DNA of 41,023 bases, from assembly GCA_002069965.1 (NCBI GenBank), contig MWCI01000026.1, positions 1 through 41,023 of the forward strand. The letters are read 5' to 3'. The translations under genes and the position numbers were made by a program. Under the pieces are notes generated by a model. That model saw only the letters and a program-made list of their open reading frames with translations. It searched no databases and had not been told where the DNA came from. This stretch comes from Spirochaetes bacterium ADurb.Bin218 (GTDB lineage Bacteria > Spirochaetota > UBA4802 > UBA5550). Within the stretch, counting starts at the first letter, position 1. Each line of letters opens with the position of its first letter. Shown here piece by piece: positions 19,629-22,675 of the stretch.

Positions 19629-19904
19629 AGGAACTCTCCTTCATTGATTTTATTGATACAGGGCTTTAAGCCCTTAGTGTGCTTTTTTGTATAAGAATAG
19701 CAAAAATACAAAAAAATTTCCAATTGCCAGACAAAAGGTATTGTATTGGGGCCGCTATTAGAGTCTTCCATATCCCTGATAAATCCGATAATTTGATTTA
19801 TTAACAAACATAATTTTGTGGTGCTTTTGAATTTGTCAATTAATATAATGAATTTTAATATTTCTTCCTGTTAAATTCAAGCAAATATTAGCATAGTGGC
19901 TCTG

Positions 19905-20033
19905 ATGGGCACAACTCAAATTTTGAAGTTGCAGCACTTAGGCGTTTTTGTAGAATTTCAAAAGAGGAGATACTTCTATATCAATCAACCCTGTGGAAGG
20001 TATAAAATAACTATGGAGAGAGAAACTAACTAA
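19905..20033 (+). pseudogene. possible decayed small toxin-like ORF (HicA-like resemblance, weak)
   Basis: A 42-residue frame starts MGTTQILKLQHLGVFVEFQK and continues RRYFYINQPCGRYKITMERETN. The order L-x-x-LG-F/V-x-V-x-x-Q-K-x-x-x-x-x-Y-I-x-x-P-x-G-x-x-x-I-T loosely follows the HicA mRNA-interferase pattern (GF-x-x-x-RQKGSHH-x-x-Y-x-x-P-x-G-x-x-x-T-I-P). However, the catalytic GSHH is replaced by RRYF and the C-terminal part is missing. No ribosome site is visible. It may be a relic of a toxin-antitoxin gene or chance; the resemblance is by eye only. Confidence 0.2.
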
Positions 20034-20053
20034 GAATAGTTCAAAATTTGAGT
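19914..20053. repeat. pair of 14-bp inverted, self-palindromic repeats
   Basis: ACTCAAATTTTGAA at 19914-19927 and its exact reverse complement TTCAAAATTTGAGT at 20040-20053 flank a 112-base interval. Each arm is itself nearly palindromic (TCAAA-T-TTTGA). They could therefore be two copies of an operator-like site, or ends of a tiny degenerate mobile element. No target-site duplication is obvious around them. Confidence 0.55.
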
Positions 20054-20069
20054 GTAACTGCATATCTCA

Positions 20070-20486
20070 TTAATCCAGATTATCGTGATTAATAACTTTT
20101 ATTTCTTTAACTCTAAAAAAGGGCTTATTTCTGGTTTCTGATGTGATAAACTCATCAATTTTTTCATGCACAGAAAATACAATATGAAAGGCATCCATGG
20201 CTGAAAGACCGTAATTTTTAGCAAGTGTTTTAGCTTCCTTTAAAATTCTTTCATCCCAGTTTAAAATGATACAATTGTCAAATATTGCCTGGTAAAATTC
20301 TACCTCTTCATTGCTTTTATTGTATATAGCTTTTGGAAAAATTTCCATCCAAACTGCATCACTAACATAAAACTCATATTCCTCATTACCCAGTAGTTTG
20401 AGAAATTTTTGACTTATATCTTCAGGTCCTCTAAATGCAGCTATTAACACACCAGAATCCAGATAAGCCTTTTTCTTATAATTCAT
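20070..20486 (-). CDS. VapC-like PIN-domain ribonuclease (putative toxin)
   Basis: A 138-residue PIN-domain protein. Predicted acidic metal-site residues are Asp10 in AYLDSGVLIAAF, Glu48 in DAVWMEIFPKA, Asp98 in LSAMDAFHI and a final acidic position around Glu117 in FITSETRNKPFF, where many PIN proteins have T-x-D. PIN nucleases of this size are typically VapC toxins cleaving tRNA or rRNA. It overlaps the upstream 67-codon gene by 11 bases, the usual antitoxin-toxin arrangement. The third gene of the operon, a TIGR04255-like protein, is not a standard VapBC component. Toxicity is inferred, not shown. Confidence 0.8.
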   Translation of the reverse strand: MNYKKKAYLDSGVLIAAFRGPEDISQKFLKLLGNEEYEFYVSDAVWMEIFPKAIYNKSNEEVEFYQAIFDNCIILNWDERILKEAKTLAKNYGLSAMDAFHIVFSVHEKIDEFITSETRNKPFFRVKEIKVINHDNLD

Positions 20487-20679
20487 CTTTTGTAAGTTCT
20501 TTATTTATTTCTTCAATAGTATATATTTTACCACCAGAGTTTACATAGTTTAATCTCAATTCCTGTAGCTTTTTAACAAAACTTTTTTTTTGCTTTAATG
20601 GTTCTATAGTGTTACTTAAGGATACTGTGGAATAAAATCTACTATTGTTAAAATATGCTATATTACTTACTAATTCCAT
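20476..20679 (-). CDS. putative antitoxin of the PIN-domain protein
   Basis: A 67-residue protein that I do not match to a named family. The middle (KQKKSFVKKLQELRLNYVNSGG) is basic and helical. The C-terminus YTIEEINKELTKDEL resembles the toxin-wrapping tails of small antitoxins (E-E-I-x-x-E-L). It starts three bases after the TIGR04255-like gene and overlaps the PIN gene by 11 bases, so all three should be translated from one message. The N-terminal part (YFNNSRFYSTVSLSN) could be a beta-strand or DNA-binding arm. The antitoxin call rests on size and position. Confidence 0.55.
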   Translation of the reverse strand: MELVSNIAYFNNSRFYSTVSLSNTIEPLKQKKSFVKKLQELRLNYVNSGGKIYTIEEINKELTKDEL

Positions 20680-20682
20680 TAT

Positions 20683-21423
20683 CTACCACTCCGGCTCTAA
20701 TTTATTAATTATTGAATCTTTTAGTATCATGTCAAAAAAAATTTCTTTTGCTTTATAATGCATGGCATCAATATTACGATTTATCAATTCATTGAACAGG
20801 ATACCACGTTCAAGAAGTTCAACCTCGATATCAATAATAGTTCCTGAGATTTGTCTATTGTCCATTACAATATCCATAGGTCTTGCAACCTGTATGATAT
20901 TTTTGAATCCTCCATCAAATTTTTCCACTAATAAACTAATTTTTTCATCTTTTACCTCCCATTTATCAATATTAATTGATACCTTAAGATCAGATAAATC
21001 ATGGAAGATATCCTTTTCTATAAGATCTATATACCTCAAAGAAATCTTTTCGATTGACTTAAACAAGTTTATTTCTTCAAATATTCCTGATAAAAATTTA
21101 ATCTCCTCTACAAATCTATTCCATCCTAAATAAGGTTTTTTATTGTTAAAAGTAAATACTCTTTCTCCCACCTGCCAGATTAATGGAATATCCATTACTT
21201 CAATTCTTAATGAAGGTGCATACCTTAAATTTGGGTCTATTTCCTTAATCTCAGCTGGAATAGACTCTGCAGGAAGCTTATTTATAACAAGATTAGAATA
21301 TTTATTTTTTAAACGTGAAAATAAAATGCCAGGTATAATCTTTGCAAAGTTTGGCTCTGTTTCAAATCGTAACTCCCATAGAACTTCTATAAGAGGATCT
21401 TTTTTTAATTTTTTAGGTATCAT
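20683..21423 (-). CDS. TIGR04255-like protein (sporadically distributed family)
   Basis: About 246 residues, cytoplasmic, no signal or membrane segment. The N-terminus (KKDPLIEVLWELRFETEP) and the central beta-rich part resemble the family named only for its sporadic distribution, TIGR04255, of unknown function. Recognisable central segments are WQVGERVFTFNNKKPYLGWN, IEKISLRYIDLIEK and ISGTIIDIEVELLERG. A GTG start at 21438 is also possible; I prefer the ATG at 21423, since neither has a clear ribosome site. It is the first gene of a three-gene operon with the putative antitoxin and PIN nuclease. That points to a tripartite toxin-antitoxin or defence-type module. The family call is by pattern recognition. 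Confidence 0.65.
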   Translation of the reverse strand: MIPKKLKKDPLIEVLWELRFETEPNFAKIIPGILFSRLKNKYSNLVINKLPAESIPAEIKEIDPNLRYAPSLRIEVMDIPLIWQVGERVFTFNNKKPYLGWNRFVEEIKFLSGIFEEINLFKSIEKISLRYIDLIEKDIFHDLSDLKVSINIDKWEVKDEKISLLVEKFDGGFKNIIQVARPMDIVMDNRQISGTIIDIEVELLERGILFNELINRNIDAMHYKAKEIFFDMILKDSIINKLEPEW

Positions 21424-21506
21424 ACTAAACCATGTCACACTTTATCATAGATTAAACAATCACTGATTTTGATGAGATTTTTATATCTCTTCTAACGTCG
21501 TTAATT

Positions 21507-21534
21507 TTTATAAAGTCAAAAAATTTTTTGTTAA
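21507..21534 (-). promoter_or_regulatory. promoter of the TIGR04255-antitoxin-PIN operon
   Basis: On the minus strand, TTAACA (plus 21529-21534), a 16-base spacer and TATAAA (21507-21512) match consensus at five of six positions each. They lie about 70-100 bases before the first gene. A small inverted repeat (GTGTA-AA-TACAC, 21547-21558) lies just upstream and could be an operator, as toxin-antitoxin operons are often autoregulated. Confidence 0.5.
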
Positions 21535-21658
21535 ATTCACTCTTTAGTGTAAATACACAATTTAGAGCTAAAATAGCTTACTTAATTGTATATTCTTTGT
21601 CAAGACATCTTTTGTAGATACAGCTTGACAGCAAAAATATAGCTGTTATCCACGGCTT

Positions 21659-22675
21659 ATGGAAAAAGAAATAAAACTCTTCCTTGCTCCTATGGCAGAG
21701 ATTACAACTGCAGCCTTTAGAAAAACTGTGAGAAGTTTTAGTCCACAGGCCGTGCTTTACTCTGAGATGCTAAGCGCTGCTGCTATTGTAAGCGGTGGCA
21801 TGCACAATGAATACCTCCTCAAAAAAAATGAGGATGATGATCCCTTTGTTTATCAAATCCTTGGTGGAGATCCAGAGCTTATGAAAAGAGCCTGTATTGC
21901 TCTTCAGGAAAGAGGTCCTTTGGGTATAGATATAAACATGGGGTGCAGTGCTCCAGAGATAATAAAAAAATTTCAGGGTTGCAGGCTCTTATCTGATATA
22001 AAAATAGCAGAAAAAATAGTAAAATCCTGCAGAGAGGTCTGCAAGTGTTTGCTCTCTGTAAAGATGCGAAGTGGTTTTGAAGAGACGGATGTTGACTATA
22101 TAGTTGATTTTGCCCTAATGCTTCAAGATGCAGGTGTTGATTATATTACTATCCATCCACGACATGGAAAGCTTTCCTTTAAAAGAAAGGCTGATTGGGG
22201 TCTCATAAAAGAATTTAAAGAAAAGCTCTCCATACCTGTTATCGCAAATGGGGATATTCTAACTCCAGAGGATGCTATTAGCTGTCTTGAAGAGACGGGC
22301 AGTGATGGGGTTATGATTGGAAGAGCAGCTATTGCAAGCCCATGGATTTTTTATTCCATAGACATGTTGCTTAAGAGAGGATTTTATGACCTAACTGTTG
22401 ATCTCTTCGATATTTATAAAGATGTAATGGAATCCATTGCTGATACATTACCAGAGAATCTTCATAAAAGCAGGGCTCATAGATTTTCTTTTTATTATTT
22501 TAAGAATTTTGTTTTTTCCCACGAACTCATGAATAAAATAAGAGTGCTTGACAGAATTGATTTGATGATCAATACTCTAAGGGATTATCTTGAAAGAAAT
22601 CCGCATGAGAGAGTTAAAAGCTTTAAAGGGGGGCTTTATGGAATACATGAGGATCTGGCAGGAAGTAGATATTGA
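21659..22675 (+). CDS. dus: tRNA-dihydrouridine synthase
   Basis: FMN-dependent enzyme reducing specific uridines in tRNA D-loops to dihydrouridine. The 338-residue TIM-barrel protein opens with FLAPMAEITTAAFRKTVRSF. It has the catalytic cysteine at Cys96 in DINMGCSAPEIIKKFQG (the family usually has GCP, here GCS), then LLSVKMRSGFE, YITIHPRHGKLSFKRKADWGLI, VIANGDI and GVMIGRAAIASPWIF. All binding motifs are present. No ribosome site precedes the ATG at 21659, where a TTGACA at 21625-21630 lies only 28 bases away. A short-leader or leaderless transcript is therefore possible. The end overlaps a zinc-ribbon gene by 38 bases. Confidence 0.9.
   Translation: MEKEIKLFLAPMAEITTAAFRKTVRSFSPQAVLYSEMLSAAAIVSGGMHNEYLLKKNEDDDPFVYQILGGDPELMKRACIALQERGPLGIDINMGCSAPEIIKKFQGCRLLSDIKIAEKIVKSCREVCKCLLSVKMRSGFEETDVDYIVDFALMLQDAGVDYITIHPRHGKLSFKRKADWGLIKEFKEKLSIPVIANGDILTPEDAISCLEETGSDGVMIGRAAIASPWIFYSIDMLLKRGFYDLTVDLFDIYKDVMESIADTLPENLHKSRAHRFSFYYFKNFVFSHELMNKIRVLDRIDLMINTLRDYLERNPHERVKSFKGGLYGIHEDLAGSRY

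What the first reader, a model, noticed from the sequence alone, without database searches (positions are those of the whole stretch)
20070..21438. Three-gene PIN toxin / small antitoxin-like / TIGR04255 module
The sequence shows one tightly packed minus-strand operon: a TIGR04255-like protein, a 67-residue protein three bases later, and a PIN ribonuclease overlapping it by 11 bases, behind a good promoter. Known VapBC systems have two genes. TIGR04255 is known only as a sporadically distributed family of unknown function. Inference: a tripartite toxin-antitoxin or phage-defence unit in which the TIGR04255 protein is a sensor, chaperone or target adaptor.
Basis: partly seen in the sequence, partly recalled or inferred. 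Interest (0 to 1): 0.7.

Follow-up and report, generated by a model that had tools for sequence, protein, structure and literature searches.

The report
Three-gene toxin cassette with swappable toxin
A spirochaete genome carries a three-gene toxin–antitoxin cassette whose first gene, the unstudied protein family TIGR04255, turns out across many bacteria and phages to be the constant part of a widespread, undescribed system in which the antitoxin and toxin (here a PIN ribonuclease) are swapped for other kinds.

Summary
The three minus-strand ORFs are real: TIGR04255 protein (A), 67-aa protein (B), PIN nuclease (C) with an intact acidic active site. The "good promoter" was not confirmed. The cassette is a low-GC insertion between livK and dus; related genomes have the empty site. 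In 114 non-duplicate TIGR04255 loci from several phyla and from temperate phages, A is followed, nearly always in tight coupling, by a B gene and then a C gene. C varies: PIN (10, plus two of other types), MazF, HEPN, HicA-like, Zeta, PtuB-like HNH, AAA and several unnamed families. B type follows C type. The window's B carries the antitoxin tail of two-gene PIN modules that lack TIGR04255. Closely related A proteins (58% identical) serve different toxins, and B's N-terminus weakly follows A while its C-terminus follows the toxin. So A is the constant part of a modular tripartite toxin–antitoxin cassette, most likely for phage defence. By analogy with SecB-type TAC modules, A probably holds B's N-terminus and frees the toxin when a phage is sensed; that step is inferred. 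A's predicted fold is two-lobed, weakly TBP-like. No PADLOC model and no paper in the library names the family.

The parts
20683..21438 (-). Gene A: TIGR04255 protein, 251 aa (246 aa if it starts at the ATG at 21423); proposed sensor/holder of the antitoxin
   Evidence: NCBIfam TIGR04255, 112 bits, E 3.2e-32; AF2 pLDDT 92.7; conserved PYxGW, RYIDxI, LEPEY
20689..20692 (-). Shine-Dalgarno-like GGAG of gene B, inside the 3' end of gene A
   Evidence: sequence; inference
20476..20679 (-). Gene B: 67-aa protein, proposed antitoxin
   Evidence: ORF; found by a profile of two-gene PIN antitoxins at E 5e-5 and by the PIN-class cassette B profile at E 1.6e-6
20584..20679 (-). N-terminal segment of B (about residues 1-32), low-confidence/disordered; proposed contact with A
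   Evidence: pLDDT about 35-59 in the A-B read-through model; class-wide N-terminus/A co-variation; inference for this locus
20491..20583 (-). C-terminal toxin-neutralising tail of B (about residues 33-63, 'FVKKLQELRLNYVNSGGKIYTIEEINKELT')
   Evidence: profile alignment to PIN-class antitoxins
20070..20486 (-). Gene C: PIN-domain nuclease, 138 aa, proposed toxin; acidic residues D10, E48, D98, E117
   Evidence: PF01850 E 1.5e-13; the four acidic residues invariant in cassette and two-gene relatives
19850..21660 (.). Approximate extent of the horizontally acquired insertion between livK and dus
   Evidence: empty livK-dus intergenic regions in same-genus L146 and same-family L148, flank alignments, GC 27-30% against about 37-42% for livK/dus
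20708..20735 (-). Possible internal promoter for B and C (TTGACA-16-AATAAT, 11/12)
   Evidence: consensus scan only

Best explanation
The three genes form one tripartite toxin-antitoxin unit of a modular, mobile type. C is a toxic PIN ribonuclease. B is its antitoxin and neutralises it through its C-terminal tail. A (TIGR04255) is the constant partner: it binds B's N-terminal segment and keeps B folded, stable and able to neutralise C. When a phage component binds or titrates A, or A otherwise lets go, B is lost and C cleaves RNA, stopping growth and phage production. Supported here by comparison: gene order, coupling, B as antitoxin by homology, toxin swapping on a constant A, carriage by phages and by an inserted island. 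Inferred: A-B contact, chaperone/sensor action, the trigger, and RNA as the target of this PIN.
For: A-B-C order in 114 non-duplicate loci, B starting -80 to +24 nt from the A stop in 110, C usually within 30 nt of B. B and C families match class by class. C carries known toxin/effector domains in 21 of 108 cases, against 2 PIN among the genes upstream of A (only 25 of 121 families shown; Fisher p 3e-5). A profile of antitoxins from two-gene PIN modules lacking TIGR04255 picks out the ten PIN-class B proteins, window included, and no other B. The effector label needs 34 changes on the A tree (least possible 13, shuffled mean 73.5; at least 3 PIN changes forced by strong branches); A proteins up to 58% identical carry different effectors. 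Across effector classes B's N-terminus follows A (0 of 2000 permutations as high) and its C-terminus does not. Carried by temperate phages Dobby, VW-6S and SNW-1 and by 14 IMG/VR contigs. The window copy is an island at a site empty in relatives. Parallel: SecB-TAC modules, where one chaperone family serves unrelated toxin families and CmdC senses phage capsid (PMC5105189, PMC11618068).
Against: No experiment. The A-B read-through model shows no confident docking. A's listed fold matches include no SecB and are weakly TBP-like. Hydrophobic, chaperone-client-like N-termini occur in some B classes but not in the window's B. A two-gene PIN module in a viral contig (L178) has a similarly short, about 62-aa B without TIGR04255, so the window's B might neutralise alone. 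The N-terminus signal rests on 46 non-independent pairs from few swaps. The commonest effector families have no known function.
Confidence: 0.6

Rival explanations
1. A is the operon's autoregulator: a TBP-like DNA-binding protein that replaces the DNA-binding part missing from B and represses the operon, alone or with B and C.
For: Best Foldseek hits to A are TATA-binding proteins (E 2.7e-4, prob 0.99), again in the viral library. The window's B has no recognisable DNA-binding domain.
Against: TM-scores to TBP are only 0.25-0.37. One whole effector class has B proteins with their own helix-turn-helix (cluster), making a second repressor redundant. Co-variation of B's N-terminus with A points to protein contact.
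Confidence: 0.15
2. A is a target adaptor or co-effector: it binds phage or host RNA or ribosomes and brings the C nuclease to its target.
For: The associated effectors with known domains are mostly RNA- or nucleic-acid-acting (PIN, MazF, HEPN, HNH). A has a two-lobed alpha/beta prediction with long curved-sheet strands.
Against: A also pairs with Zeta, AAA and many unnamed effectors. It is translationally coupled to B, and B's N-terminus follows A, which fits an A-B rather than an A-C contact.
Confidence: 0.15
3. An ordinary two-gene VapBC-type module with an unrelated upstream gene.
For: B and PIN are homologous to two-gene modules without TIGR04255 on cyanobacterial plasmids and in L178.
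Against: A-B-C coupling across over 100 loci, several phyla and a dozen effector families is hard to explain as hitchhiking.
Confidence: 0.03

Closest known systems
SecB-type toxin-antitoxin-chaperone (TAC) modules, incl. M. tuberculosis TAC and CmdTAC
   Same: Three genes; one constant partner family serving antitoxins of unrelated families; extra antitoxin segments without mutual similarity; several toxin types; at least one acts in phage defence (PMC5105189, PMC11618068).
   Different: Partner is TIGR04255, not SecB; it is the first gene; the variable extra segment is at the N-terminus of B, not a C-terminal ChAD; many more effector families.
VapBC type II toxin-antitoxin modules (PIN toxins), in particular the two-gene PIN modules on cyanobacterial plasmids (L051-L053)
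   Same: PIN toxin 38-42% identical to the window's; antitoxin with the same C-terminal tail; B and C overlap or nearly touch.
   Different: Two-gene antitoxins have another N-terminal domain or none, and no TIGR04255 gene nearby.
TIGR04255 (sporadTIGR04255), NCBIfam family of unknown function
   Same: Gene A is a clear member (112 bits, cut-off 30).
   Different: Family definition says nothing of B, C or a toxin role.
Retron and Septu effectors (PtuB HNH; PtuA/MAD3/Eco8-type AAA)
   Same: Single cassettes carry effectors matching these models (L012, L117), so TIGR04255 cassettes draw on the same effector pool.
   Different: TIGR04255 sits in the constant-partner position; reverse transcriptases and msDNA were not searched for in these loci.
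Panacea (DUF4065) hyperpromiscuous antitoxin network
   Same: One constant protein part combined with many toxin families (PMC8832971, PMC10440598, abstracts).
   Different: There the constant part is a domain of the antitoxin itself; here it is a separate third gene and the antitoxin varies with the toxin.

Membership tests
TIGR04255 | score above the curated HMM cut-off over nearly full length | tested here: met
   112.3 bits against 30, model positions 1-243 of 252
TIGR04255 | sporadic distribution | tested here: met
   18/393, 30/398, 66/392 and 13/289 genomes in four phylum samples; 0 of 14 control genomes
VapBC / PIN toxin-antitoxin | PIN domain with four conserved acidic residues | tested here: met
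   PF01850; D10, E48, D98, E117 invariant
VapBC / PIN toxin-antitoxin | small antitoxin gene upstream, coupled, with toxin-binding tail | tested here: met
   11-nt overlap; antitoxin-tail profile hit E 5e-5
VapBC / PIN toxin-antitoxin | antitoxin with its own N-terminal DNA-binding domain | tested here: not met
   67-aa B has no Pfam/NCBIfam domain; N-terminus modelled with low confidence
VapBC / PIN toxin-antitoxin | two-gene unit | tested here: not met
   third gene A present and coupled in ten PIN-class cassettes, though the same PIN family also occurs in two-gene modules
SecB-type TAC | three-gene unit in which one partner family serves several TA families | tested here: met
SecB-type TAC | third gene is a SecB-fold chaperone | tested here: inconclusive
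   no SecB among the listed fold matches; weak TBP-like matches; absence from a list excludes nothing
SecB-type TAC | C-terminal chaperone-addiction extension on the antitoxin | tested here: not met
   conserved toxin-binding tail is at B's C-terminus; the variable segment is N-terminal
SecB-type TAC | antitoxin stability and neutralisation depend on the partner | not testable with these tools
   needs expression experiments
Known anti-phage system (PADLOC) | A, B or C of the window matched by a PADLOC model | tested here: not met
   no hit for window A, B or C at E up to 1

The most novel reading that the evidence does not exclude
TIGR04255 is a new, non-SecB family of dedicated infection sensor/antitoxin holder that arms at least a dozen unrelated toxins and effectors, several of unknown chemistry, in a widespread and undescribed class of phage-defence cassette.
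Probability: 0.5. Interest if true: 0.87.

Novelty: new variant of a known kind. Interest (0 to 1): 0.74.

Why it matters
It gives a family annotated only as 'sporadic' a testable role and marks its neighbours as candidate toxins. In four phylum samples, 127 of 1472 genomes carry it. Several effector families found this way (the 'QGD...SxSCDI' proteins, the 'SVSRH' proteins, DUF7689) have no known activity and become candidate new toxins. If A holds the antitoxin as SecB does in TAC modules, it shows that toxin control by a third, phage-sensing protein arose with a different protein family.

Tried and rejected
SecB identity of A: not among listed fold matches; no claim made that it is excluded. 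Creatine-kinase-like and TBP-like matches: Z up to 8.4 and TM about 0.3, within background, used only as description. A-B docking through the in-frame TAG (TAG read as Q, an artificial fusion, no claim of recoding): no confident interface. B N-terminus as a universal hydrophobic chaperone client: true for some classes, false for the window's B. B-only rows added to the A-B alignment aligned wrongly and were removed. Full-family alignment too diverse for a contig scan. B in plasmids by tblastn: nothing. Integron cassette: the 14-bp inverted repeat after PIN lacks attC core sites by eye and is single-copy. No Rfam element. PIN nearest solved structure by sequence: none significant. The upstream-gene control lists only 25 of 121 families, so it could miss a few single toxins.

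Full report
OBSERVATION. A (20683-21438) is TIGR04255 at 112 bits against a cut-off of 30. B (20476-20679, 67 aa) matches nothing. C (20070-20486) is a PIN domain, E 1.5e-13. B starts 3 nt after the A stop behind a GGAG, and C overlaps B by 11 nt. The promoter claim fails: upstream of A the scan finds only 9/12 matches at a chance rate; the one 11/12 site near the operon is inside A, just before B. PADLOC has no match to any of the three, and no paper in the 5.39-million-paper library contains 'TIGR04255'.

THE ISLAND. The genome has one TIGR04255 gene. In same-genus G192 (L146) and same-family G180 (L148), livK and dus face away from each other across 391 and about 350 bp with no cassette. 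In the window the gap is 2,030 bp; homology on the livK side ends near 19849 and resumes at dus. GC falls to 27-30% in the cassette against about 37-42% in livK and dus. The cassette is therefore most likely an acquired insertion.

NEIGHBOURHOOD SURVEY. TIGR04255 was found in 18/393, 30/398, 66/392 and 13/289 genomes of four phylum samples, in 25 genome contigs with named records, and in phages and plasmids. Of 114 non-duplicate loci, 110 have a same-strand gene starting -80 to +24 nt from the A stop (most often -4 or -8), and a third gene mostly within 30 nt of that. Clustering C at phmmer E<1e-4 gives families of 27 ('QGD...SxSCDI'), 14, 12, 10 (PIN), 8 (MazF), 6, 6, 6 (HEPN) and smaller ones; B clusters match C clusters. 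Pfam on 108 C proteins: PIN 9, PemK/MazF 7, DUF7689 6, HEPN 2, Zeta 1, HNH 1, AAA 1; two more look HicA-like by eye (L009, L120). PADLOC/NCBIfam name single C proteins as PtuB-, MAD3/PtuA- and HEC-01A-like. As control, the genes upstream of A are mixed housekeeping and mobile genes with PIN in 2 of 107 (only 25 of 121 families shown). 21/108 against 2/107 gives p 3e-5.

PIN CLASS. Besides the window, TIGR04255-B-PIN occurs in L026 (Verrucomicrobia LP2A), L032, L033, L106, L111, L113, L116, L125 and L139; L119 and L006 carry other PIN types. In L106 the class rests on B, in L125 the PIN frame is short, and in L006 the PIN gene is split over two frames. The acidic residues D10, E48, D98, E117 are invariant in cassette and two-gene PINs, so the window's enzyme looks intact.

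B IS THE ANTITOXIN. The nearest plasmid relatives of the window's PIN (38-42% identical) are two-gene modules on cyanobacterial plasmids with no TIGR04255 in the 1.5 kb around them. Their antitoxins end in a tail of the form 'LGxxLxxIRxxIxxxGxPLLTxxxIExE' behind a different N-terminal domain. A profile of just these three two-gene antitoxins, run against all cassette B proteins, returns the ten PIN-class B proteins including the window's (E 5e-5) and nothing else below E 1. So B's C-terminal half is a PIN antitoxin tail. MazF-class B proteins end in a conserved 'LRxFAEDWDxPGMExYDxL', by memory a MazE-like tail (a lead, not a test).

A IS CONSTANT, THE TOXIN IS SWAPPED. On a tree of 108 A proteins the effector label needs 34 changes (13 is the least possible; shuffled mean 73.5), and strong branches force at least three changes for PIN (quick method, several long branches). 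The window's A groups with MazF- and PIN-carrying A proteins (support 90). L026 (PIN) and L073 (MazF) have A proteins 58% identical, as have L060 (DUF7689) and L119 (PIN2). Among 46 pairs with similar A but different effector class, B N-termini are more alike than when B is reassigned within class (21.0 against 18.95, sd 0.56; 0 of 2000), while C-termini are not (20.3 against 20.7). This fits B as an adaptor, N-terminus to A and C-terminus to the toxin. The effect is small and the pairs are not independent.

PHAGES. A-B-C occurs in P. aeruginosa phage Dobby next to the portal gene, in VW-6S between the CI repressor and the integrase, in SNW-1, and on 14 IMG/VR contigs, nearly all with a full A-B-C. 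Cargo of this sort in temperate phages commonly protects the lysogen (established knowledge), which supports defence; the window's own island has no other recognised defence gene beside it.

STRUCTURE. A is predicted with pLDDT 92.7 as a two-lobed alpha/beta protein. PDB matches are weak: TBP E 2.7e-4 but TM about 0.3, best Z 8.4. A fused A-B chain, made only by reading A's TAG stop as Q, keeps A intact and leaves B's N-terminus at pLDDT 35-59 with two C-terminal helices near 60: no docking shown, none excluded.

MECHANISM. The best-supported reading is a tripartite toxin-antitoxin cassette with A as the constant holder or sensor of B. The known parallel is TAC: SecB-like chaperones protect antitoxins of HigA, HicB and MqsA type through ChAD segments that share no significant similarity (PMC5105189), and in CmdTAC phage capsid protein pulls the chaperone away, the antitoxin is degraded and the toxin is freed (PMC11618068). 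The cassettes differ in partner family, gene order and the end of the antitoxin that varies, so they are not filed as TAC; they may work like one. Rivals are A as repressor and A as target adaptor.

VERDICT. Unit and association: strong. Role of A: inferred. New variant of a known kind (tripartite toxin-antitoxin), with a fair chance of being a distinct, widespread defence class.

Noticed in passing
window 19914-19927 and 20040-20053: Perfect 14-bp inverted repeat with 112 nt between, directly downstream of the PIN stop; single copy in the genome, fold not better than shuffles, no attC core sites by eye.
   Followed up: partly
window 20708-20735 (-): 11/12 sigma-70-like site inside the end of gene A, placed to transcribe B and C without A.
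   Followed up: no
L020:2187-2786, L005:2507-3046 and 25 others: Large family of about 180-210-aa third genes with QGD and S-x-S-C-D-I motifs and no Pfam match in the ones scanned; the commonest effector slot and carried by Pseudomonas phages; possible new toxin family.
   Followed up: partly
L013, L014, L068, L127, L129, L133-L136 and others (third genes): Second large unclassified third-gene family ('SVSRH'), with a matching B family of about 150-180 aa.
   Followed up: no
L026, L060, L138, L143 (genome G393, Verrucomicrobia LP2A): One genome with four TIGR04255 matches (one partial) and three different effector classes.
   Followed up: partly
L028, L032, L040, L013, L049: Cassettes next to genes that look like restriction or BREX/DISARM-type components by eye (PglZ-like, HsdM/HsdS-like, restriction helicases); not scanned by HMM.
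   Followed up: no
L037, L117, L138: TIGR04255 reading frames of 391-499 aa, possibly fusions or upstream extensions.
   Followed up: no
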